The notes under the pieces were generated by a model, which was not told the DNA's origin, made no database searches, and saw only the letters and a list, made by a program, of their open reading frames with translations. From Shinella zoogloeoides (GTDB taxonomy: Bacteria; Pseudomonadota; Alphaproteobacteria; Rhizobiales; Rhizobiaceae), in assembly GCF_020883495.1 (NCBI RefSeq), contig NZ_CP086610.1, positions 2,771,501 to 2,835,500 of the forward strand: 64,000 bases of DNA, read 5' to 3'. Position 1 is the stretch's first letter. Every line of letters begins with the position of its first letter. A program made the translations under genes and the position numbers. Shown here one piece after another: positions 8,564 to 28,081 of this stretch.

Positions 8564-10048
8564 ATGAGCGACATATCCAGTACACATCCGGTGGACGAGA
8601 AGCTGCCGGTCGGCAGGCTCGCGACGCTGGGCATTCAGCACGTGCTCGTCATGTATGGCGGCGCCGTGGCGGTGCCGCTGATCGTCGGCCGCGCCCTGCA
8701 GCTCAGCCCGCAGGATGTCGCATTCCTGATTTCCGCCGACCTCTTCGTCTGCGGCCTCGTCACCATCATCCAGTCGCTCGGCGTCACCCGCCATGTCGGC
8801 ATCCGCCTGCCCGTCATGATGGGCGTGACCTTCGCTTCCGTCGGCCCGATGGTCTCCATGGCCACCATGGCGCCCGGACCGGAAGGCGCGCGCATGATCT
8901 TCGGCGCCATCATAGGCGCCGGCTTCGTCGCCTTCCTGCTCGCGCCGATCATGGGGCGGCTCCTGCGCTTCTTCCCGCCCGTCGTGACCGGCACCATCAT
9001 CCTCGTCATCGGCGTGTCGCTGATGCGCGTCGGCATCAACTGGACCTTCGGCAACCCCTTCGGCCCGACGGCGCCCAAGGTAATCGACCCGGCCCATACC
9101 GCATGGCTGACGCAGATGAAGGAGCTTGCCGCAAGCGGCGGCCCGGCCGTCCCGCAGGGCCTTGCCCTCGCGCCGACCGTCTCCAACCCGATCTATGCCG
9201 AGCCGATCCACATCGCCCTTTCGGCGCTGGTCCTCGTCTCCATCCTGCTCATCGCGCGCTACGGCCGCGGCCTGATCAGCAACATCGCCGTCCTGAGCGG
9301 CGTCATCATCGGCTGCCTTGCCGCCTCGATCCTCGGCCTGATGCATTTCGACCGCGTGGCCGATGCCGGCTGGTTCGCCGTCGTCACGCCGCTGCGCTTC
9401 GGCATGCCCATCTTCAACCCGATCCTCATCGCCACCATGACGCTTGTCATGATCGTCGTGATGATCGAATCGACCGGCATGTTCCTCGCCCTCGGTGAAA
9501 TCACCGAAAAGCCGATCGGCCAGCAGCAGCTCACCTCGGGCCTGCGCGTCGATGGCATCGGCACGATGATCGGCGGCCTGTTCAACACCTTCCCCTATAC
9601 CAGCTTCTCGCAGAATGTCGGTCTCGTCGGCGTCACCGGCGTCAAGAGCCGCTATGTCTGCGTCGCGGCCGGCGTCATCATGATCGTCCTCGGCCTCATC
9701 CCGAAGATGGGCGCGCTGGTGGAAGCCGTACCGACCTTCGTTCTCGGCGGCGCGGGCCTCGTGATGTTCGGCATGGTCGCCGCGACGGGTGTGCGCATCC
9801 TCGCCACGGTCGACTTCAAGGCCTCGCGCAACAACCTCTTCGTGGTTGCCGTGTCGATCGGCTTCGGCCTCATCCCACTGCTGGCGCCGAACTACCTGAT
9901 GTGGATGCCGCATGCGATCCACCCGATCATCGAATCGGGCATCGTGCTCGCCTCCATCGCGGCCGTGATCCTCAACGCCTTCTTCAACGGCGTCAGCTAC
10001 GATCACGCCTCCGCCGTGGACGCCACCCGCATGGCCGACAGCCACTAA
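8564..10048 (+). CDS. NCS2/NAT-family nucleobase permease (xanthine/uracil type)
   Basis: 494-residue inner-membrane proton symporter for purines or pyrimidines, in the 14-segment UraA/XanQ fold. Hydrophobic segments begin at about residue 18 (LATLGIQHVLVMYGGAVAVP) and continue through the C-terminus. The NAT signature QNVGLVGVTG follows NTFPYTSFS, and the substrate-contact segment VMIESTGMFLALGEIT precedes it. A soluble-looking loop of about 45 residues (NPFGPTAPKVIDP and following) sits mid-protein. The ATG at 8564 has a GGGAGGAG ribosome site. No purine-degradation genes adjoin, so xanthine, urate or uracil cannot be decided. A strong terminator follows. Confidence 0.9.
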   Translation: MSDISSTHPVDEKLPVGRLATLGIQHVLVMYGGAVAVPLIVGRALQLSPQDVAFLISADLFVCGLVTIIQSLGVTRHVGIRLPVMMGVTFASVGPMVSMATMAPGPEGARMIFGAIIGAGFVAFLLAPIMGRLLRFFPPVVTGTIILVIGVSLMRVGINWTFGNPFGPTAPKVIDPAHTAWLTQMKELAASGGPAVPQGLALAPTVSNPIYAEPIHIALSALVLVSILLIARYGRGLISNIAVLSGVIIGCLAASILGLMHFDRVADAGWFAVVTPLRFGMPIFNPILIATMTLVMIVVMIESTGMFLALGEITEKPIGQQQLTSGLRVDGIGTMIGGLFNTFPYTSFSQNVGLVGVTGVKSRYVCVAAGVIMIVLGLIPKMGALVEAVPTFVLGGAGLVMFGMVAATGVRILATVDFKASRNNLFVVAVSIGFGLIPLLAPNYLMWMPHAIHPIIESGIVLASIAAVILNAFFNGVSYDHASAVDATRMADSH

Positions 10049-10076
10049 CCGCAGGCTTCAGCCTTCCGAAAACAAG

Positions 10077-10109
10077 AAAGCCGGCCCGTTCACCACGGGC
10101 CGGCTTTTT
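10077..10109 (+). terminator. Terminator of the permease gene
   Basis: AAAGCCGGCCCGT pairs perfectly with ACGGGCCGGCTTT (13 bp, 5-base loop), ending in a T-run. It follows the permease stop by 28 bases. Confidence 0.92.
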
Positions 10110-10150
10110 ACGTGAGCGCCTGCCGGCCACGCCGCCCGGCGGAACGCGAA

Positions 10151-10179
10151 ATGAAAAGCCCGGCGCGAAGCCGGGCTTT
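10151..10179 (-). terminator. Terminator of the dgoD gene
   Basis: AAAGCCCGGC pairs with GCCGGGCTTT around a 5-base loop, and on the minus strand it ends in a T-run. It ends the gntR-dgoD transcript and lies back to back with the permease terminator. Confidence 0.85.
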
Positions 10180-10202
10180 CCAGGGACGATCGATGCGGCG
10201 CA

Positions 10203-11351
10203 TCACCACTCGGCGACGCTGCCGTCCTCGTGACGCCAGACGGGGTTGCGCCAGCGGTGGCCTTCCTTGGCCCGTTCGATGACATATTGCTCGTCCACTT
10301 CCACGCCGAGGCCCGGTCCCTGCGGGATCGAGACGAAGCCGTCCGCGTAGTGGAACACCTCCTTGTTGGAAATGTAGTCGAGGATGTCGTTGGACTTGTT
10401 GTAGTGGATGCCGAGGCTCTGCTCCTGGATGAAGGCATTGTAGGAGACGGCGTCGACCTGAAGGCAGGCGGCGAGCGCGATCGGACCCAGCGGGCAATGC
10501 GGCGCGAGCGCCACGTCGTAGGCCTCGGCCATCGCCGCGATCTTGCGGCATTCCGTGATGCCGCCGGCATGCGAAAGGTCGGGCTGCAGGATATCGACAT
10601 AACCATCCGCCAGCACCGACTTGAAATCCCAGCGCGAATAGAGCCGCTCGCCAAGCGCGATCGGCGTGGAGCAATGGTTGGCGATCTCCTTCAGCGCCTC
10701 GCGGTTCTCCGACAGCACCGGCTCCTCGATGAACAGGAGATTGTAGGGCTGAAGCTCCCTGGCCAGCACCTTGGCCATCGGCCGATGCACGCGGCCGTGG
10801 AAATCGACACCGATGCCGATATGCGGGCCGATGGCCTCGCGGATCGTCGCGATGGTCTCGACCGCCTTTTCCACCTTCTCCCAGGTGTCGACGATCTGCA
10901 TCTCCTCGCAGCCGTTGAGCTTGATCGCCTTGAAACCGCGGGCGACGACCTCGCGGGCATTGTTGGCGACGTCGGAGGGGCGGTCGCCGCCGATCCAGCT
11001 ATAGACCTTGATCCTGTCGCGCACCTGCCCGCCGAGCAGGGCATGGACCGGCTGGCCATAGGCCTTGCCCTTGATGTCCCAGAGCGCCTGATCGATGCCG
11101 GCGAGCGCCGACATGTGGATGCCGCCGCCGCGATAGAAGCCGGCGCGGTACATGACCTGCCAATGGTCCTCGATCAGCAGCGGGTCCTTGCCGACGAGAT
11201 AGTCGGAAAGCTCGTGTACCGCCGCCTCCACGGTCAGCGCGCGGCCCTCCACAACCGGCTCGCCCCAGCCGACGATGCCCTCGTCCGTCTCCACCTTCAG
11301 GAAAAGCCACCGGGGCGGCACGATATAGGTCGTCAGCTTCGTGATCTTCAT
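10203..11351 (-). CDS. dgoD: D-galactonate dehydratase (enolase superfamily)
   Basis: 382 residues, the same length as E. coli DgoD. It dehydrates D-galactonate to 2-keto-3-deoxygalactonate in the De Ley-Doudoroff pathway. It begins [25 protein letters not shown]. The metal ligands appear as VDFHGR (Asp183 with His185), FIEEPV and GERLYSRW, and the general acid His lies in [13 protein letters not shown]. His185 falls exactly where the enzyme's catalytic His does. The ATG at 11351 overrides a longer frame to 11423. It is downstream of a FadR-type GntR gene by 55 bases, likely one operon. No DgoK or DgoA partner is in the window. Confidence 0.93.
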
Positions 11352-11406
11352 GGATTCCATCCCTCGTCGGTTCGTATGGATAGCGGGCAGAGGCCCGCGA
11401 AAGTCG

Positions 11407-12153
11407 TCAGTCCCCGCGCGCACCGTCCATCAGGGCGGAAAGGTCGCGGGCGGCAAGATCGAGAATATTGCGCGAGCAGGCCTCCGCCCGCGCGCCGTCG
11501 CGCAGGCGCAGCGCGTCGACCAGCTCGCGGTGAACATCCAGCGCCTCGCCCCGCCGCGCGGCCGCGCGGTTGGAAGCGTGCAGCGCATAGGACAGCGCCG
11601 CATGGATGATGGAGGAGAACTGGTGGAAGACCTTGTTGTGGCTCGCCCTCAGCAACGTCTCATGGAAGCGGGCATCGGCGGCGGTGAAGGCTTCGAGGTC
11701 CCCTTCCGTCTCGCGCATCTCGTCGCAGGCCCGCTCCAGATCGGCGATCTCCTGCGCCGTCGCGCGCGAGGCCGCGAGGAAGGCGGCGGCCGGCTCCACG
11801 GTGCGGCGCGCTTCGAGGATCGAGCCGAGCAGCTCGCTCGACAGCACCTCCGGCCCCATCCATTCGAGGATCTGCGCGTCGAGCACGTTCCATTCCGACC
11901 TGTCGCAGACCAGCGTGCCGACACGCGGCCGGCCGCGCACCAGACCATTGGTCTCCAGCACCTTCAGGGATTCGCGGATGACGGTGCGACTGACACCGTA
12001 GGTCTCGCAGAGATCGCTTTCGCGCGGCAGCACCGCGCCGGGAGGAAAACGCCCGCCGCAGATATCCGCCCCGATGGCGGCCGTCACGTTATGGCGCACG
12101 CGCGGACGGCGCGACGACGGGCGCTGCACCGGCCTCCTTGCCTTGTCCGTCAC
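11407..12153 (-). CDS. GntR-family regulator, FadR/FCD subfamily (DgoR-like)
   Basis: 248-residue regulator. An N-terminal winged helix-turn-helix spans about residues 20-85 ([40 protein letters not shown]). A helical FCD effector domain follows with the typical Asp/His positions in [13 protein letters not shown]. It is co-oriented with dgoD and divergent from the UxaA/GarD-like dehydratase gene, so it probably senses a sugar acid or its keto-deoxy product and represses both sides. The AT-rich 12180-12260 stretch is the likely operator zone, but I could not define a clean palindrome. Naming it DgoR would be inference from context. Confidence 0.88.
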
Positions 12154-19886: not shown

Positions 19887-20004
19887 TCGGCACGGGCAAG
19901 CAAGGCAGGCGGGGCGCGTCATTCCCGCTTGCAATCTCCCTTCGCCTTGCACACACTCCCCTCGATGACGGCGCGAGACCGTCACCGAGGGGAACAGAGA
20001 GCGC

Positions 20005-23000
20005 ATGTCGATCAAGGCCGGTATCTACCACCTTACGCACTACAAATACGACAACCCGGTCCGTCTCGGACCCCAGATCATCCGGCTGAAACCGGCGGCG
20101 CATTCCAAGACCAAGGTGATCAGCCATTCGCTGAAGGTCTCGCCCGAAAACCATTTCGTGAACCTCCAGCAGGACCCCTACGGCAACTACCTCGCCCGCT
20201 ACGTCTTCCCCGATCCGGTGACGGAACTGAAGATCGAGGTCGATCTCGTCGCCGACATGACGGTCTACAATCCCTTCGATTTCTTCGTGGAGGAAGAGGC
20301 CGAGCACTGGCCCTTCGATTATCCGGCCGATCTCGTCGAGGACCTGAAAATCTACCGCACGCCCGAGCCGCTGACGCCGGCGCTCGAAGCATTCATGAAG
20401 ACCGTCGATCGCTCGCGCCAGCGCACGGTGGACATGGTGGTTGGCCTTAACGCGCGGCTCCAGCAGGAAATCGGCTACGTCATCCGCATGGAACCCGGCG
20501 TGCAATCGCCGGAAGAGACGCTGAGCATCGCCCGCGGTTCCTGCCGCGATTCAAGCTGGCTGCTCGTGCAGATCCTGCGTAATCTCGGCCTCGCCGCCCG
20601 CTTCGTCTCCGGCTATCTCATCCAGTTGACGCCCGACCTCAAGGCGCTCGACGGCCCCTCCGGCACGGAGGTGGATTTCACCGACCTCCATGCCTGGTGC
20701 GAGGTCTACATCCCCGGTGCCGGCTGGATCGGTCTCGACCCGACCTCGGGCCTTTTGACCGGCGAAAGCCACATCCCGCTCGCCGCAACGCCGCATTACC
20801 GCAACGCCGCCCCGATCAGCGGCGGCTATTTCGGCGAGGCGAATACCGAATTCGACTTCGCCATGACGGTGACACGCGTCGCCGAGCATCCGCGCATCAC
20901 GAAACCCTTCTCCGACGAAAGCTGGGAGGCGCTGAACGCGCTCGGCCGCGAGGTGGACGGCGTGCTCGCCGCCAATGACGTGCGCCTCACCATGGGCGGC
21001 GAGCCGACCTTCGTCTCCATCGACGATTTCGAATCCGCCGAATGGAACACCGCCGCCGTCGGCCCCACCAAGCGCGAGAAGGCCGACACGCTCATCCGCC
21101 GCCTGCGGGAAAAATTCGCGCCCGGCGGCTTCCTGCACTACGGGCAGGGCAAGTGGTATCCCGGCGAAAGCCTGCCGCGCTGGACCTTCTCGCTCTACTG
21201 GCGGCGCGACGGCAAGCCAATCTGGCAGAACCCGGACCTCATTGCCGAGGAAAGCGCGCCGCGCCCCGTCACCGATGACGATGCCGGCCGCCTGCTCACC
21301 GCCATTGCCGGCGAACTCGACATTCCGCCCGAAAACGTGGTGCCCGCCTTCGAGGACCCAGCCGAATGGCTGGTCAAGGAAGCGAACCTTCCCAACAACG
21401 TGGACCCCTCCAACTCGAAGCTGGAGGACGCCGAGGAGCGCAGCCGCATCGCCCGCGTCTTCGAGCGCGGCCTCACCCGCCCGACCGGCTACGTGCTGCC
21501 CGTTCAGGCGTGGAATTCCCGCGCCAGCGGCCGCCGCTGGTCGAGCGAGAAGTGGCAGACCCGCCGCGGCCGCCTCTTCCTCGTGCCCGGCGACAGCCCC
21601 GTCGGCTACCGCCTGCCGCTGAATTCGCTGCCCTGGCTCTCGCCCGCCGTCTATCCCTACATAAACCCGATGGACCCCACCATCGAACGCGACGAACTGC
21701 CTGATTACGCGGAGGATGCAGGCCGCCCGCTGCAGGCCGCGCATTTCCAGCCCTTCGAGGGCCAGCAGCCGCAGATGCCGCAATCCACCGACGAAATCGG
21801 CGGCTATGTGCGCACCGCCATCTCGGTCGAGCCGCGCGACGGCCGGCTCTGCGTCTTCATGCCGCCCACCGTCAGCGTCGAGGAGTATCTCGACCTCATC
21901 GCCTCGGCCGAGCGCGCCGCCGCCGCCCTCGGCCTGCCGGTCCATATCGAGGGCTACGCCCCGCCGCATGACGAACGCCTCAACGTGATCCGCGTCGCGC
22001 CCGATCCCGGCGTCATCGAAGTCAACATCCACCCGGCCTCCACCTGGGACGACTGCGTCGACATCACCACGGCGATCTACGAGGAAGCCCGCCAGTCCCG
22101 TCTCGGCGCGGACAAGTTCATGATCGACGGCCGCCACACCGGCACCGGCGGCGGCAACCATGTGGTCGTCGGCGGCGCGAATCCGAACGACAGCCCGTTC
22201 CTGCGCCGTCCCGACCTCCTGAAGAGCCTCGTGCTGCACTGGCAGCGCCACCCCTCGCTCTCCTACCTTTTTTCGGGCCTCTTCATCGGCCCGACCAGTC
22301 AGGCCCCGCGCATCGACGAGGCGCGCCACGATTCACTCTACGAGCTGGAAATCGCGCTCTCGCAGGTGCCGCCGCCGGGCGAGGGCCAGCCGCCGCTGCC
22401 CTGGCTCGTCGACCGCCTGTTCCGCAACCTCCTGACGGACGTCACCGGCAACACGCACCGCTCGGAAATCTGCATCGACAAGCTCTTCTCGCCGGATGGC
22501 CCGACCGGCCGCCTCGGCCTCGTCGAATTCCGCGGCTTCGAGATGCCGCCGAATGCCCGCATGAGCCTTGCCCAGCAGCTCCTCATCCGCGCCCTCATCG
22601 CCCGCTTCTGGCAGAACCCGGCGCAGGGCGGCTTCGTGCGCTGGGGCACCACACTGCACGACCGCTTCATGCTGCCGCATTATGTCTGGCAGGATTTTCT
22701 CGATGTCCTCGCCGACCTCAAGGCGAACGGCTTCGAACTGCGCCCGGAATGGTTTTCCGCCCAGCTCGAATTCCGCTTCCCCTTCTGCGGCGAGGTAGAA
22801 TACGAGGGCGCGAACCTCGAACTGCGGCAGGCGCTGGAGCCCTGGCATGTCATGGGCGAACAGGGCGCGATCGGCGGCACGGTGCGTTATGTCGACTCAT
22901 CCGTCGAGCGCCTGCAGGTGAAGCTGGAAACGGCCAATCCCGAGCGCTACGCCGTCGCCTGCAACGGCAGGCCCATGCCGCTGCGCTCCACGGGCGCCAA

Positions 23001-23325
23001 GGGCGTCTCGGTCGCCGGCGTGCGCTTCAAGGCATGGCAGCCCGCCTCGGGCCTCCATCCGGTGCTGCCCGTCAACACACCGCTTACTTTCGACATTTAT
23101 GATACATGGTCGAGAAGAGCCATCGGAGGCTGCATTTACCACGTTGCCCATCCCGGCGGACGCAACTATGACACCTTCCCGGTAAACGGCAACGAGGCCG
23201 AGGCGCGCCGGCTGGCGCGGTTCGAGCCCTGGGGGCACAGGGCGGGCGGCTATACGCTGTGGCCGGAAACACCGCCGGCGGAATTCCCGCTGACGCTGGA
23301 CCTGCGCCGGCCGCCCGGTATCTGA
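20005..23325 (+). CDS. Transglutaminase-like protease domain fused to DUF2126 (GCS-like COOH-NH2 ligase)
   Basis: 1106-residue cytosolic two-part protein. Residues 1-85 are the bacterial transglutaminase N-terminal beta domain ([23 protein letters not shown]). The papain-like core has Cys180 ([17 protein letters not shown]), His229 ([23 protein letters not shown]) and Asp245. From about residue 310 the DUF2126 part includes [35 protein letters not shown] and [18 protein letters not shown]. Comparative work (Iyer and colleagues, 2009) placed such proteins among predicted amidoligases related to glutamate-cysteine ligase. The substrate is unknown. It heads an operon with the ATP-grasp/alpha-E and second transglutaminase genes. 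No signal peptide. Confidence 0.92.
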
Positions 23326-23326
23326 A

Positions 23327-23404
23327 GCAATTCCGGCAAAAGTGCGCAGCGGTTTTGCATCCGCAATTGCGCGAAACAAAGAGCTGGAGCATTTTCGCGA
23401 TTCG
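23327..23404. repeat. Rhizobial palindromic repeat, full-length copy
   Basis: It starts GCAATTCCGG-CAAAA and returns as TTTTGCATCC-GCAATTGC, forming a long imperfect hairpin. A conserved tail runs CGAAACAAAGAGCTGGAGCA then TTTTCGCG. It lies directly after the DUF2126 stop and before the ATP-grasp start. Diverged copies are at 32980, 46596 and 56654. Confidence 0.75.
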
Positions 23405-23443
23405 AAGAGACGCGGACATGCCGCAGCTCCCAGGAGACATGGA

Positions 23444-25852
23444 TTGAAGACCACGACTGCGGAAGCGGAGCGCATCGAGGCCGAGGCGGCGGACGCCTCC
23501 GCACGCGCCTATGCGCCCCTTCCCGGCATTGCCGACGAGATGGTCGATACGCAAGGCGCGGTGCGCCCCGTCTGGCGTCCCCTCCTCTCGGCGCTCGAGC
23601 GCATGGACGAAACAGACCTTGCCGGACGCTTCGCCCGCGCCGACCGCTACCTGCGCGATGCCGGCGTCTTCTACCGCGCCTATGGCAAGGAGGCGGGAAC
23701 GGACCGCGCCTGGCCGCTCTCGCACATCCCCGTCCTCATCGACGAGGCGGAATGGGAGCACCTGTCGCGCGGCCTCGTCCAGCGCGCCGAGCTGCTGGAA
23801 GCCGTCGTCGCGGATATCTACGGCCGGAACGAGCTGGTCGCGAACGGTCTCCTGCCCCCTGCCCTCGTCGCCTCCAATGACGAATTCCTGCGCCCGCTCG
23901 TCGGTGTGCAGCCGGACGGCAAGCATTTCCTGCATTTCGTCTCCTTCGAGATCGGCCGCGGGCCGGACGGCAAGTGGTGGGTGCTTTCCGACCGTACGCA
24001 GGCTCCCTCCGGCGCGGGCTTCGCGCTGGAGAACCGCGTGGCGACGACCCGCGCCTTTTCCGACGTCTTCGCCGAAACCCATGTGCATCGCCTCGCCGGC
24101 TTCTTCGGCGCTTTCCGCAACACACTGCAGGCCGGCAAAGTGGCCGAGGAGCGCATCGCCGTCCTGACGCCCGGCCTTGCCAACGAAACCTATTTCGAAC
24201 ACGCCTATATCGCCCGCTATCTTGGCTTCATGCTGCTGGAGGGCGAGGACCTGACCGTCGTTGACGGCAAGGTCATGGTGCGCACGGTCGCGGGCCTCAA
24301 GCCCATCGGCGTGCTCTGGCGCCGCCTCGACGCCGCCTTTGCCGATCCGCTCGAGCTGAACCAGAACTCCCATATCGGCACGCCCGGGATGGTCGAGGCG
24401 CTGCGCTCCGGCTCCGTCACCTTCGTCAACGCGCTCGGCGCGGGCATCGTCGAGACACGCGCCTTCCTCGCCTTCCTGCCGAATATCTGCCGGCACCTGC
24501 TCGGCGAGGAGCAGCGCCTTCCCTCCATCGCGACCTGGTGGTGCGGGCAGAAGGACGAGCGCGAGCACGTCACGGCCAATATCGAGCGCATGGTCATCGG
24601 CCCGGCCTATTCCACGCGGCCCTTCTTCGACGACAATGCCCAGTCCGTGCTCGGCTCCAGCCTGCGCGACACCGCAAAACAGTCCATCGCCGAATGGCTG
24701 GCGAGCGACGGCGCCAAGCTCGTCGGGCAGGAAGCCGTCACGCTCTCCACCACGCCCGCTTTCGTCGGCGGCAAGCTGGTGCCGCGGCCGATGTCGCTGC
24801 GCGTCTTCGCCGCCCGCACGCGCGACGGCTGGCAGATCATGCCGGGCGGCTTCGCCCGCATCGGCGCCGGCGACAATGTCGCGGCCATCGCCATGCAGGA
24901 AGGCGGCTCGGCGGCCGACGTGTGGATCGTCAGCCGCAAGCCCGTCGAGCGCACCTCGCTGCTGCCGCCGGAGGAAGATTTTACCCGCAACATGCCCGGC
25001 AGCCTGCCGAGCCGCGCGGCCGACAACCTCTTCTGGCTCGGCCGCTATATCGAGCGGGCGGAAGGGGCGCTGCGCATCCTGCGCGCCTGGCACAGCCGCT
25101 ACGCCGAATATGCCGATCCCGAACAGCCGCTGCTGAAGGACGTCAGCACCTATCTCGACGCACTCGACATCGACACCTCCGAGGCCGTGCCGACAAGCCT
25201 CATCCGCAACATCGACAGCGCCGTCTTCTCCGCCAGCAATATCCGCGACCGCTTCTCGCCGGACGGCTGGCTGGCGCTCAACGACCTGTCGAAGACCGCC
25301 CGCCGCTTCCATGTCAGCATCGAGCCGGGCGACGACGCGACCCGCGCCATGACGGTGCTGCTGCGCAAGCTCGCGGGCTTCGCCGGCCTTGTGCACGAAA
25401 ACATGTACCGCTTCACCGGCTGGCGGTTCCTCTCCATCGGCCGTTACCTCGAACGCGGCCTGCACATGACGCGCCTGCTCGGCCACATGTCCGGCGAGGA
25501 TGCGCCCGACGGCGCGCTCGACATGCTGCTGGAAATCGGCGACAGCGTGATGACCCATCGCCGCCGCTACAATGTGGCGACCGCGCGCCTGACCGTCACC
25601 GACCTTCTGGCGCTCGACGCGCTCAATCCCCGCTCGATCCTCTACCAGCTCAACGAGATCAAGAACGAGATCGAGCAATTGCCGAATGCCTATTCGAACG
25701 GCCAGATGTCGCCCTTCTACCGCGAGGCCATGCGCCTTCACGCGGGGCTGGCGGTGATGACGCCGGAGACGATGACGGACGCCGTCTACAAGCGCCTCGA
25801 GACGGAGATGGAAAAGCTCTCCGACATTCTCGCGCAAACCTATCTGAGCTGA
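23444..25852 (+). CDS. Circularly permuted ATP-grasp (DUF404/DUF407) fused to alpha-E domain (DUF403)
   Basis: 802 residues. The N-terminal half is the circularly permuted ATP-grasp ligase: FYRAYGKEAGTDR, LLEAVVADIYGRNELV, TPGLANETYFEHAYIARYLGF, VLWRRLDAAFADPLELN and LVGQEAVTLSTTPAF. After about residue 490 comes the helical alpha-E domain (LPSRAADNLFWLGRYIERAEGALRILR and RFLSIGRYLERGLHMTRLLG). ATP-grasp enzymes of this kind are predicted to join a carboxylate to an amine using ATP. I place the start at TTG 23444, seven bases after AGGAGA; the nearby ATG hits a stop two codons on. Many genomes split the two halves; here they are fused. It is the middle gene of the operon. Confidence 0.9.
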   Translation: MKTTTAEAERIEAEAADASARAYAPLPGIADEMVDTQGAVRPVWRPLLSALERMDETDLAGRFARADRYLRDAGVFYRAYGKEAGTDRAWPLSHIPVLIDEAEWEHLSRGLVQRAELLEAVVADIYGRNELVANGLLPPALVASNDEFLRPLVGVQPDGKHFLHFVSFEIGRGPDGKWWVLSDRTQAPSGAGFALENRVATTRAFSDVFAETHVHRLAGFFGAFRNTLQAGKVAEERIAVLTPGLANETYFEHAYIARYLGFMLLEGEDLTVVDGKVMVRTVAGLKPIGVLWRRLDAAFADPLELNQNSHIGTPGMVEALRSGSVTFVNALGAGIVETRAFLAFLPNICRHLLGEEQRLPSIATWWCGQKDEREHVTANIERMVIGPAYSTRPFFDDNAQSVLGSSLRDTAKQSIAEWLASDGAKLVGQEAVTLSTTPAFVGGKLVPRPMSLRVFAARTRDGWQIMPGGFARIGAGDNVAAIAMQEGGSAADVWIVSRKPVERTSLLPPEEDFTRNMPGSLPSRAADNLFWLGRYIERAEGALRILRAWHSRYAEYADPEQPLLKDVSTYLDALDIDTSEAVPTSLIRNIDSAVFSASNIRDRFSPDGWLALNDLSKTARRFHVSIEPGDDATRAMTVLLRKLAGFAGLVHENMYRFTGWRFLSIGRYLERGLHMTRLLGHMSGEDAPDGALDMLLEIGDSVMTHRRRYNVATARLTVTDLLALDALNPRSILYQLNEIKNEIEQLPNAYSNGQMSPFYREAMRLHAGLAVMTPETMTDAVYKRLETEMEKLSDILAQTYLS

Positions 25853-25873
25853 GCGAGGGGGAGGCGCCGAACC

Positions 25874-26761
25874 ATGCTCTACGACGTCAACCTCCATATC
25901 AGCTATCTCTATGACACGCCGGTTTCCGGCGGCCGGCATATCGTGCGCGTGCTACCGCTCTCCATCGAGGGCCGCCAGCGCCTCGTCGCCGGCACGGTCG
26001 GCGTCGCCCCCGATCCCGGCGAGCGGGTCGACCATCACGATTTCTTCGAAAATCCGATGAGCGCGATCCTCTTCCGCAGCCAGCACGAGCGGCTCGATAT
26101 CCGCATGCAGGCCCGCGTGCAGGTCGATGCGCCCGAGACGACCGCCGACCTCTCGCCCTGCGTTGCCGAACTGCCGGAGGATATCGCCGGCTACTGGTCG
26201 CTCGACGCCGGTTCGCCGCACCATTACACCGGCCCGAGCCCGCGGCTGAAGGAATGCCCGGAAATCGCCGAATATGCCCGCGCCATCGCCAAGCCCGGCA
26301 TGACGGTCCGCGCCATCGCGACGGCGCTCTGCGCCCGCATCCACAAGGATTTCACCTACGATCCCAAGGCGACCAGCGTGGACACGACCCCGCGCGAGGC
26401 CTTCAAGCTGAAGAAGGGCGTCTGCCAGGACTTTTCCCATGTGATGATCGTGGCGCTACGCAGCCTCGGCATTCCGGCCGGCTATGTCAGCGGGTTCCTG
26501 CGCACCATTCCCCCGCCGGGCAAGGAGCGGCTGGAAGGCGCGGACGCCATGCATGCCTGGGTGCGCTACTGGGGCGGGCGGGTGAACGGCTGGATGGAAC
26601 TCGACCCGACCAACGACATCCCCGCCGGCACCGACCATATCGTCGTCGCCTATGGCCGCGACTATGCCGATGTCGCCCCCGTCATCGGCGTGCTGAAGGG
26701 CTACGGCCAGCACCAGACGAGCCAGGCTGTCGATGTCATTCCGGTGCGGCCGGCACCGTGA
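25874..26761 (+). CDS. Transglutaminase-like cysteine-protease-fold protein
   Basis: 295 residues: a bacterial transglutaminase N-terminal domain (HISYLYDTPVSGGRHIVRVLPL) followed by the core with Cys184 (LKKGVCQDFSHVMIVALRSLGIPAGYVSGF), His227 (DAMHAWVRYWGG) and Asp244 (WMELDPTND). Family members are generally regarded as peptidases or amide-bond transferases. It follows the ATP-grasp/alpha-E gene by 21 bases with GGGGGAGG as ribosome site, so it is the third gene of the operon. One gene set thus carries two predicted ligases and two predicted amide-cleaving enzymes, which suggests making and removing a peptide-like tag or metabolite. There is no secretion signal. Confidence 0.92.
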   Translation: MLYDVNLHISYLYDTPVSGGRHIVRVLPLSIEGRQRLVAGTVGVAPDPGERVDHHDFFENPMSAILFRSQHERLDIRMQARVQVDAPETTADLSPCVAELPEDIAGYWSLDAGSPHHYTGPSPRLKECPEIAEYARAIAKPGMTVRAIATALCARIHKDFTYDPKATSVDTTPREAFKLKKGVCQDFSHVMIVALRSLGIPAGYVSGFLRTIPPPGKERLEGADAMHAWVRYWGGRVNGWMELDPTNDIPAGTDHIVVAYGRDYADVAPVIGVLKGYGQHQTSQAVDVIPVRPAP

Positions 26762-26902: not shown

Positions 26903-28081
26903 ATGACGAAGATGGCAGAAAAATCGACGCTCGTATCGCGCTTGCTGCGCGACCGCTCGGGCAATTTCGCGATGGTGACCGCCGTCGTCATCCCGGTCAT
27001 CCTCATGGCCGCCGGCGTCGCGATAGACCTCACCAAGACGGTCCTTGCGAAAGCCGAGCTGCAGGATGCGTCCGACGCCGCCGTTCTCGCCGCCGCGGCG
27101 GCGCTGGCGAACGACGGCAAATCCATCGACGAAGCCAGGATCATCGCCCAGGAGCTTTTCACGCTGCAGATGAGCGGGGCGTCCTCCATCGTCAAGGAAG
27201 GCGACGCGACGCTGGTCGACACCGCCCCCGTGATCAACATTACGGAAACGGCGATCGGGAGCACCGGCAAGTCGTACAAGGTGGAAATAGACGCCAGTTA
27301 TTCCGTAAAATACAACGTCCTCACGCGGCAGCTCCTCGGCCACCAGAACGGCACGCTGGAGACGACGAGCATCGCGGAAAGCGGCACGGCCGACTCGAAG
27401 AGCGCCTTCTCCATGTATTTCGTGCTCGACAAATCCGGGTCCATGGGCGAAGAAACGAAAAGCACCACGTCCTATCCCTGCCCTACCAAGAAGAAGCCGG
27501 ACAAGGTCTGCTCGAAGAACCTGACGCGTATCGAGTCGCTGAAGCTTGCGACCGCCAGCCTTCTCACCCAGATCGATATCGCCGACCCCACGGCGACCTA
27601 TGTGCGTACCGGCGCGGTTTCCTATAACAGCGCGGCCCAGAAAGCGAAGCCTCTCGACTGGGGCACAACAGGCGTTCTCGACTACGTCAACGCCCTGACG
27701 GCCGACGGCAACACGAACTCGGCCCCGGCCTTCAAGATCGCCTATGACAGCCTGATGCTCGATACGGAGGCGCAGGCTCACAAGGATAAGCAGGGCAACG
27801 GGCAGGTTCCCGCGAAATACATCGTCTTCATGACCGACGGTGACAACAACCAGAGCAACGCGGACAAGGTGACGCTGGAATATTGCGACCTTGCGCGTAC
27901 CAAGAAGATCGAAGTCTATACGATCGCCTTCATGGCGCCGAGCCGCGGCCAGGCCCTGCTCAGCGCCTGCGCCACCACGCAGAGCCACTACTTCCTCGCA
28001 GAGAGCACGGCGGACCTCCTCGCCGCCTTCAAGAGCATCGGCCAGCAGACCTCGAAGACAATCGCCCGCGTCACGAAATAA
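26903..28081 (+). CDS. TadG-like pilus-assembly protein with C-terminal von Willebrand A domain
   Basis: 392 residues. The N-terminal Tad/TadG-like segment LLRDRSGNFAMVTAVVIPVI runs into LMAAGVAIDLTKTVLAKAEL, giving one membrane anchor at about residues 22-45. The rest is predicted to be periplasmic. The VWA domain starts near 165 with the metal-ion site DKSGSM, and FMTDGDNNQS gives a later ligand. Such proteins occur in tad/Flp pilus loci, but no other tad gene is nearby, so it is an orphan copy. The ATG at 26903 is used; ATG 26912 is an alternative. It is monocistronic with a strong terminator. Confidence 0.88.
   Translation: MTKMAEKSTLVSRLLRDRSGNFAMVTAVVIPVILMAAGVAIDLTKTVLAKAELQDASDAAVLAAAAALANDGKSIDEARIIAQELFTLQMSGASSIVKEGDATLVDTAPVINITETAIGSTGKSYKVEIDASYSVKYNVLTRQLLGHQNGTLETTSIAESGTADSKSAFSMYFVLDKSGSMGEETKSTTSYPCPTKKKPDKVCSKNLTRIESLKLATASLLTQIDIADPTATYVRTGAVSYNSAAQKAKPLDWGTTGVLDYVNALTADGNTNSAPAFKIAYDSLMLDTEAQAHKDKQGNGQVPAKYIVFMTDGDNNQSNADKVTLEYCDLARTKKIEVYTIAFMAPSRGQALLSACATTQSHYFLAESTADLLAAFKSIGQQTSKTIARVTK

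What the first reader, a model, noticed from the sequence alone, without database searches (positions are those of the whole stretch)
20005..26761. Three-gene amidoligase/transglutaminase operon, a candidate undescribed peptide-tag or metabolite system
One transcript encodes a transglutaminase-DUF2126 fusion, a fused ATP-grasp/alpha-E ligase and a second transglutaminase. All catalytic residues are intact (Cys180/His229/Asp245 and Cys184/His227/Asp244), so two predicted ATP-driven ligases sit with two predicted amide-cleaving enzymes. Such sets were predicted computationally to make and trim peptide-like modifications; I know of no established product. The fusion of the normally separable ATP-grasp and alpha-E parts fixes their stoichiometry.
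Basis: partly seen in the sequence, partly recalled or inferred. Interest (0 to 1): 0.8.

Follow-up and report, generated by a model that had tools for sequence, protein, structure and literature searches.

The report
Amide-ligase operon with dead ATP-grasp
This is a common but still unexplained bacterial gene set that should join and cut amide bonds; one of its two supposed ligases looks catalytically dead, and its relatives in other bacteria seem to be switched on by nitrogen shortage.

Summary
The three genes are real and collinear in relatives (gene 2 follows in 76 of 80 loci, gene 3 in 72 of 80). Both transglutaminase triads are intact. The kind is known: the ligase-transglutaminase fusion was described in 2008 (PMC2588565, passage), and 120 of 398 sampled genomes of the phylum carry DUF2126.

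"Two ATP-driven ligases" is not supported. The fused ATP-grasp has lost the metal-binding Asn (41 of 41 sequences) and the glycine loop (41 of 41), which unfused paralogues keep (60 of 60 and 59 of 60). This genome's intact ATP-grasp lies in a separate set. DUF2126 never occurred without alpha-E (120 of 120); 111 of 120 DUF2126 genomes have two or more alpha-E copies, against 12 of 278 others.

Outside the window's class, sigma-54 sites are enriched upstream of both modules, fitting published nitrogen-starvation data for Burkholderia and Pseudomonas. The window's own operon has no such site.

Best reading: DUF2126 is the working ligase, the fused protein a non-catalytic partner, and the transglutaminases cut or transfer the amide. 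Product unknown.

The parts
19928..19953 (+). Conserved box CTTGCnnTCTnnnnnYGCnnTGCACA, 77 bp upstream of gene 1; probably the promoter or operator of the operon in Rhizobium, Sinorhizobium, Shinella and kin
   Evidence: Exact in 15 of 92 same-class upstream regions (window included), at most 3 mismatches in 25 of 92; in 554 control upstream regions best is 3 mismatches (2 of 554). Pattern was read off some of these sequences. Only exact match in this genome.
20005..23325 (+). Gene 1 (TGD): transglutaminase domain fused to DUF2126, 1106 aa
20005..20790 (+). Transglutaminase (papain-like) domain of gene 1, residues 1-262, C180/H229/D245
20836..23307 (+). DUF2126 domain (residues 278-1101), predicted glutamine-synthetase-like amidoligase
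21001..22533 (+). Span of candidate metal/ATP residues of DUF2126: E333 (GGEPTF), E672 (IEVN), H719 (GGGNH), E841 and R843 (VEFR)
   Evidence: Invariant in 26 of 26 and 54 of 54 rows. Equivalence to glutamine synthetase ligands is inferred from motif order and spacing, not from a residue alignment.
23444..25852 (+). Gene 2 (GE): circularly permuted ATP-grasp fused to alpha-E, TTG start, 802 aa
23987..23995 (+). S182-D183-R184 of gene 2, where unfused paralogues have E-D-N and E. coli Gss has E330-Y-N332
   Evidence: N in 60 of 60 unfused; R 33, H 7, P 1 in 41 fused
24599..24643 (+). Region of gene 2 aligned with the ATP-binding Lys and glycine loop (VVKExxGSGGYG) of the unfused paralogues; motif absent
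   Evidence: GGYG in 59 of 60 unfused, 0 of 41 fused, 0 of 74 close relatives; Lys kept in 60 of 60 unfused and 10 of 41 fused, Gly in the window
25004..25846 (+). alpha-E domain of gene 2
   Evidence: PF04168 204.6 bits
25874..26761 (+). Gene 3 (TG3): stand-alone transglutaminase, 295 aa, C184/H227/D244

Best explanation
A cytoplasmic amide-bond making and cutting module. DUF2126 (GS-like fold) is the working ATP-dependent ligase of the operon and joins a carboxylate, probably glutamate or a glutamyl compound, to an amine. The attached transglutaminase domain and the third gene are papain-like amidases or acyl-transferases acting on the same bond. The fused ATP-grasp/alpha-E protein is a pseudo-ligase: it keeps the fold and the alpha-E domain but not the ATP-grasp chemistry, and serves as a scaffold or regulator, most likely for DUF2126 and for the intact ATP-grasp + alpha-E + transglutaminase set encoded elsewhere in the genome. 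The ancestral trigger is nitrogen limitation. Shown by computation: gene order, triads, loss of ATP-grasp residues, purifying selection, co-occurrence, sigma-54/NtrC sites outside this class. Inferred: ligase activity, substrates, the partner role, and nitrogen control in this organism.
For: Fused ATP-grasp lost residues: N in 60/60 unfused vs 0/41 fused; GGYG 59/60 vs 0/41; ATP-binding Lys 60/60 vs 10/41; in 74 close relatives neither motif occurs. Fused and unfused forms split cleanly (support 1.0, branch 0.91, 101 sequences). Gene 2 is under purifying selection (dN/dS 0.09-0.43 against six relatives). Candidate DUF2126 ligands invariant 26/26 and 54/54, GS-like predicted fold. DUF2126 genomes all have alpha-E (120/120 vs 92/278), 111/120 have two or more copies (vs 12/278). 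Sigma-54 sites at score 0.9 or more outside the class: gene 1 8/19, unfused ATP-grasp 8/13 and 10/20, controls 4/120; joint sigma-54 + NtrC site for the unfused set 14/33 vs 1/120. Published: the Burkholderia cenocepacia set incl. the large transglutaminase protein falls 6.0- to 9.4-fold without NtrC (PMC5491218, passages).
Confidence: 0.55

Rival explanations
1. One reading: DUF2126 and the fused ATP-grasp are both active ATP-driven ligases, with two transglutaminases trimming.
Against: Loss of the metal-binding Asn and the glycine loop in 41 of 41 and of both motifs in 74 of 74 close relatives. Alanine substitutions of the matching E163/N165 pair abolish or weaken the fungal ATP-grasp Cp1B (PMC12568646, passage).
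Confidence: 0.15
2. The fused ATP-grasp is active but has evolved other chemistry, using its own new invariant residues (W90, G127, D/Q183-R184-T-Q motif, G192, E304).
For: Residues such as W90, G127 and E304 are invariant in at least 95% of fused proteins but not in unfused ones; gene 2 is conserved and under purifying selection.
Against: No glycine loop in any of 41; the Lys varies. No known relative with such a site was found.
Confidence: 0.18
3. A nitrogen-scavenging system in which the amidases do the main work and the ligase domains prepare or regulate substrates.
For: NtrC-dependent or N-limitation-induced relatives in Burkholderia and Pseudomonas putida; DUF403/404/407 abundance tracks urea genes in marine metagenomes (PMC3597751, passages).
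Against: DUF2126 candidate ligands are more strictly conserved than gene 2 or gene 3 (identities), which points to the ligase as the core.
Confidence: 0.12
4. Protein tagging for degradation by the proteasome-like Anbu particle.
For: Anbu follows alpha-E across genomes (141/212 vs 3/186) and lies near in 6 of 40 loci.
Against: No Anbu in this genome at E 1e-15; among alpha-E genomes Anbu does not follow DUF2126 (75/120 vs 66/92, p 0.19). No conserved gene for a small tag protein appeared among neighbours of 60 aa or more.
Confidence: 0.05

Closest known systems
Transglutaminase-carboxylate/amine ligase family (Mycobacterium tuberculosis Rv2566 type; PMC2588565, passage)
   Different: That passage names only this protein family; the dead fused ATP-grasp and nitrogen control are not in the passage.
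Anbu operon: ATP-grasp, alpha-E, transglutaminase-like protein, Anbu (PMC6376114 and PMC5666114, passages)
   Same: Same domain families; a paralogous set exists in this genome at C1:2412990-2415398.
   Different: Window operon has DUF2126, a fused and residue-depleted ATP-grasp, and no Anbu in the genome. The Yersinia bercovieri ATP-grasp released phosphate from ATP, so that line is active.
Burkholderia cenocepacia I35_5080-5083 (PMC5491218, passages)
   Same: DUF404/407, DUF403, transglutaminase-like and large transglutaminase-like proteins in one NtrC-dependent cluster.
   Different: ATP-grasp and alpha-E are listed as separate genes there; the window operon has the fused paralogue and no sigma-54 site.
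Glutathionylspermidine synthetase/amidase (E. coli Gss) and eukaryotic-type glutathione synthetases
   Different: Gene 2 lacks Gss E330/N332 and the K533 loop equivalents; its amidases are transglutaminase-like, not the Gss amidase domain.
Glutamine synthetase / gamma-glutamylmethylamide synthetase fold
   Different: About 10-13% identity over 200-280 residues; large insertions; no detectable profile similarity with the shallow alignments used.

Membership tests
TG-DUF2126 / ATP-grasp-alpha-E / TG module (kind described by Iyer and colleagues) | Gene 1 with transglutaminase and DUF2126 domains | tested here: met
TG-DUF2126 / ATP-grasp-alpha-E / TG module (kind described by Iyer and colleagues) | Followed by fused ATP-grasp-alpha-E and a stand-alone transglutaminase | tested here: met
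   (76 and 72 of 80 relatives)
Anbu operon | Anbu gene in the operon or genome | tested here: not met
   G000 has no match to an Anbu query at E 1e-15; the one PF00227 hit, at C1:3583778, was not identified further
Anbu operon | Unfused ATP-grasp, alpha-E, transglutaminase in series | tested here: met
   Met by the separate set at C1:2412990-2415398, not by the window operon
Active circularly permuted ATP-grasp ligase (gene 2) | Fold of 3n6x / glutathionylspermidine synthetase | tested here: met
Active circularly permuted ATP-grasp ligase (gene 2) | E-x-N metal pair and Lys + glycine loop | tested here: not met
Glutamine-synthetase-like amidoligase (DUF2126) | GS-like fold | tested here: inconclusive
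Glutamine-synthetase-like amidoligase (DUF2126) | Metal/ATP ligands present and conserved | tested here: inconclusive
   Candidate residues invariant; equivalence rests on recalled GS motifs, spacing and order
Glutamine-synthetase-like amidoligase (DUF2126) | Profile similarity to GS or GCS2 | tested here: inconclusive
   No match, but the GS-GCS2 positive control also failed
Transglutaminase-like papain fold (genes 1 and 3) | Cys-His-Asp triad | tested here: met
NtrC/sigma-54 regulon | -24/-12 site upstream of the window operon | tested here: not met
   Best score 0.80, 181 bp upstream
NtrC/sigma-54 regulon | -24/-12 site upstream of relatives outside the class | tested here: met
   8/19, 8/13 and 10/20 vs 4/120 controls
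Protein-tagging system | Product attached to proteins | not testable with these tools
   Needs proteomics

The most novel reading that the evidence does not exclude
A two-part, nitrogen-starvation amide-synthesis system in which an active ATP-grasp/alpha-E ligase and a GS-like ligase work together through a conserved pseudo-ATP-grasp adaptor, so that DUF2126 depends on two paralogous alpha-E proteins. Its product would be an unknown amide-linked nitrogen compound or protein modification.
Probability: 0.4. Interest if true: 0.75.

Novelty: new member of a known kind. Interest (0 to 1): 0.5.

Why it matters
The gene set is very common (120 of 398 sampled genomes of the phylum) yet no product was reported in any paper seen here. 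Three results make it testable: the condition to grow cells in (nitrogen limitation, at least outside this class), the protein most likely to carry the chemistry (DUF2126, not the fused ATP-grasp), and the trans partner to include (the unfused ATP-grasp/alpha-E set). If the fused protein is a conserved pseudo-ligase, assays built on it alone would fail for a reason now stated.

Tried and rejected
Profile-profile comparison of DUF2126 with glutamine synthetase and GCS2: one search was flawed (my script took antisense frames for several proteins); redone with correct frames; no match, but the GS-GCS2 positive control also failed, so nothing follows.

First dN/dS run gave an absurd value for gene 2 against L031; redone for all three genes and six relatives, which is what I cite.

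Rlo operon of Pseudomonas aeruginosa (PMC12239564, passages): RloB has an inactive transglutaminase domain with seven membrane helices and RloC is RimK-like; a different system.

PF00227 as a test for Anbu: unreliable (one Anbu-like neighbour, L130, had no Pfam hit), so a protein query was used.

The conserved box as a regulon marker: in this genome the only exact match is the operon; 24 matches at up to 3 mismatches against 13 for the reversed control pattern, so no regulon follows.

GCAC-N7-GTGC sites upstream of gene 1 in the same class (9 of 92 exact vs 1 of 554): eight of the nine are a nearly identical 15-mer in related loci, so probably one inherited site.

DUF2126 as a search word: 0 papers; one search returned unrelated papers.

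The sigma-54 score matrix and the NtrC pattern are my own, from recalled consensus sequences; thresholds 0.85 and 0.9 were both reported; the 40 loci L161-L200 were fetched after the first positive run as a second set.

Full report
Observation. The closest protein to gene 1 is 98% identical and named Shinella zoogloeoides, so the organism is Shinella-like. Gene 2 most likely starts at TTG 23444, where an AGGAG precedes it by 7 bases and most listed close homologues are 800-805 aa. The transglutaminase triads of genes 1 and 3 are conserved. All three genes are under purifying selection (dN/dS 0.09-0.45, six relatives, 18 ratios).

Spread and gene order. Gene 2 follows gene 1 in 76 of 80 (not in L050, L074, L081, L086) and gene 3 follows in 72 of 80; four of the eight misses for gene 3 run into a contig end. 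No other neighbour is shared widely: the glycogen genes next door occur in about 25 loci of closely related genera. In an even sample of 398 genomes of the phylum, 120 have DUF2126. I fetched 40 diverse loci from these. All three genes are together in 35 of 40; the unfused ATP-grasp is within the fetched stretch in 21, its alpha-E in 20, a Peptidase_Mx metallopeptidase in 8 and Anbu in 6.

Obligate partners. In the 398 genomes every DUF2126 genome has alpha-E (120/120 against 92/278), and 111/120 have two or more copies against 12/278. Peptidase_Mx is in 58/120 against 14/278. Anbu follows alpha-E (141/212 against 3/186) but not DUF2126 within alpha-E genomes (75/120 against 66/92, p 0.19). 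None of this is corrected for phylogeny. The window's genome has one DUF2126, a second, unfused ATP-grasp/alpha-E/transglutaminase set at C1:2412990-2415398 with intact motifs, an unlinked Peptidase_Mx and no Anbu at E 1e-15.

Nitrogen link. Burkholderia cenocepacia lists DUF404/407, DUF403, transglutaminase-like and large transglutaminase-like genes at -8.2, -9.4, -9.4 and -6.0 in its ntrC mutant (PMC5491218, passages). In Pseudomonas putida PP_2686 (transglutaminase), PP_2687 and PP_2688 rise about 11- to 37-fold under nitrogen limitation with NtrB/NtrC as putative regulator (PMC7801951, passages; that the latter two are alpha-E and ATP-grasp was not tested). I therefore scanned 350 bp upstream regions for sigma-54 sites. 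At score 0.9 outside the window's class: gene 1 8/19, unfused ATP-grasp 8/13, a second set of it 10/20, fused gene first in its cluster 0/10, control genes 4/120. With an NtrC-like site farther upstream: unfused set 14/33, gene 1 3/19, controls 1/120. Inside the class: gene 1 0/11 and 1/81, unfused set 0/1 and 5/21, controls 15/554. The window scores 0.80. The unfused set of this genome has TGGTTCTTGCATTGCC 43 bp upstream, nearly unchanged in L163 and L164, which may be a weak sigma-54 site. A Caulobacter NtrC study mentions only another transglutaminase, hvyA (PMC10274813, passage), which gives no support.

A lineage-specific promoter box. Rhizobium, Sinorhizobium, Shinella and kin share CTTGCnnTCTnnnnnYGCnnTGCACA 65-120 bp upstream of gene 1 (exact in 15 of 92, at most 3 mismatches in 25 of 92, controls 2 of 554 at 3 mismatches). 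It is the only exact match in this genome. It may replace the sigma-54 promoter in this lineage; its regulator is unknown.

Mechanism. Shown by computation: order, triads, residue loss, selection, co-occurrence, promoter enrichment. Inferred: DUF2126 makes the amide bond; the transglutaminase domains cut or transfer it; the fused protein assists without ATP-grasp chemistry; the unfused set supplies the second ligase. Substrates are unknown; glutamate is a guess from the fold.

Known or new. The gene-1 family was described in 2008 (PMC2588565, passage). I recall from the abstract of Iyer et al. 2009 a predicted peptide-tagging system with ATP-grasp and GS-like ligases, an NTN peptidase and a helical domain; that paper is not held, so I cannot say whether it notes the lost ATP-grasp residues. 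My searches, of open-licence papers only, showed no reported product. I file this as a new member of a known kind; the residue loss and promoter results are the additions.

Noticed in passing
window 19928-19953: Conserved 26-bp box upstream of gene 1 shared by Rhizobium, Sinorhizobium, Shinella and kin; unique exact match in the genome. Regulator unknown.
   Followed up: partly
L010 (G000 C1:2404001-2424000), about 8771-12000: Paralogous unfused ATP-grasp/alpha-E/transglutaminase set without Anbu; a 16-bp stretch 43 bp upstream is nearly unchanged in L163 and L164.
   Followed up: partly
window 26903-28081: Protein that begins like a Tad-pilus/VWA-type secreted protein (by eye), between the operon and the glycogen genes; conserved in 23 of 81 loci including the window.
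   Followed up: no
G000:C1:778118-778867: Unlinked Peptidase_Mx metallopeptidase; its family co-occurs with DUF2126 (58/120 vs 14/278).
   Followed up: partly
L142 (G267) and G389:C1:389621-392279: DUF2126 genes in two reading frames: pieces of 300 and 687 aa in L142 and two overlapping matches in G389.
   Followed up: no
L129 and L139: Six-gene clusters with the unfused ATP-grasp, alpha-E and transglutaminase directly before TG-DUF2126, fused ATP-grasp-alpha-E and transglutaminase.
   Followed up: no
and 62 hit lists: Several DUF2126 proteins carry the name IMP dehydrogenase in public sources, apparently a propagated misannotation.
   Followed up: no
L032, L036, L037, L039, L040, L044, L045, L046: Palindrome GCACGCATGAYGTGC upstream of gene 1 in Mesorhizobium and kin, not seen in the window.
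   Followed up: no
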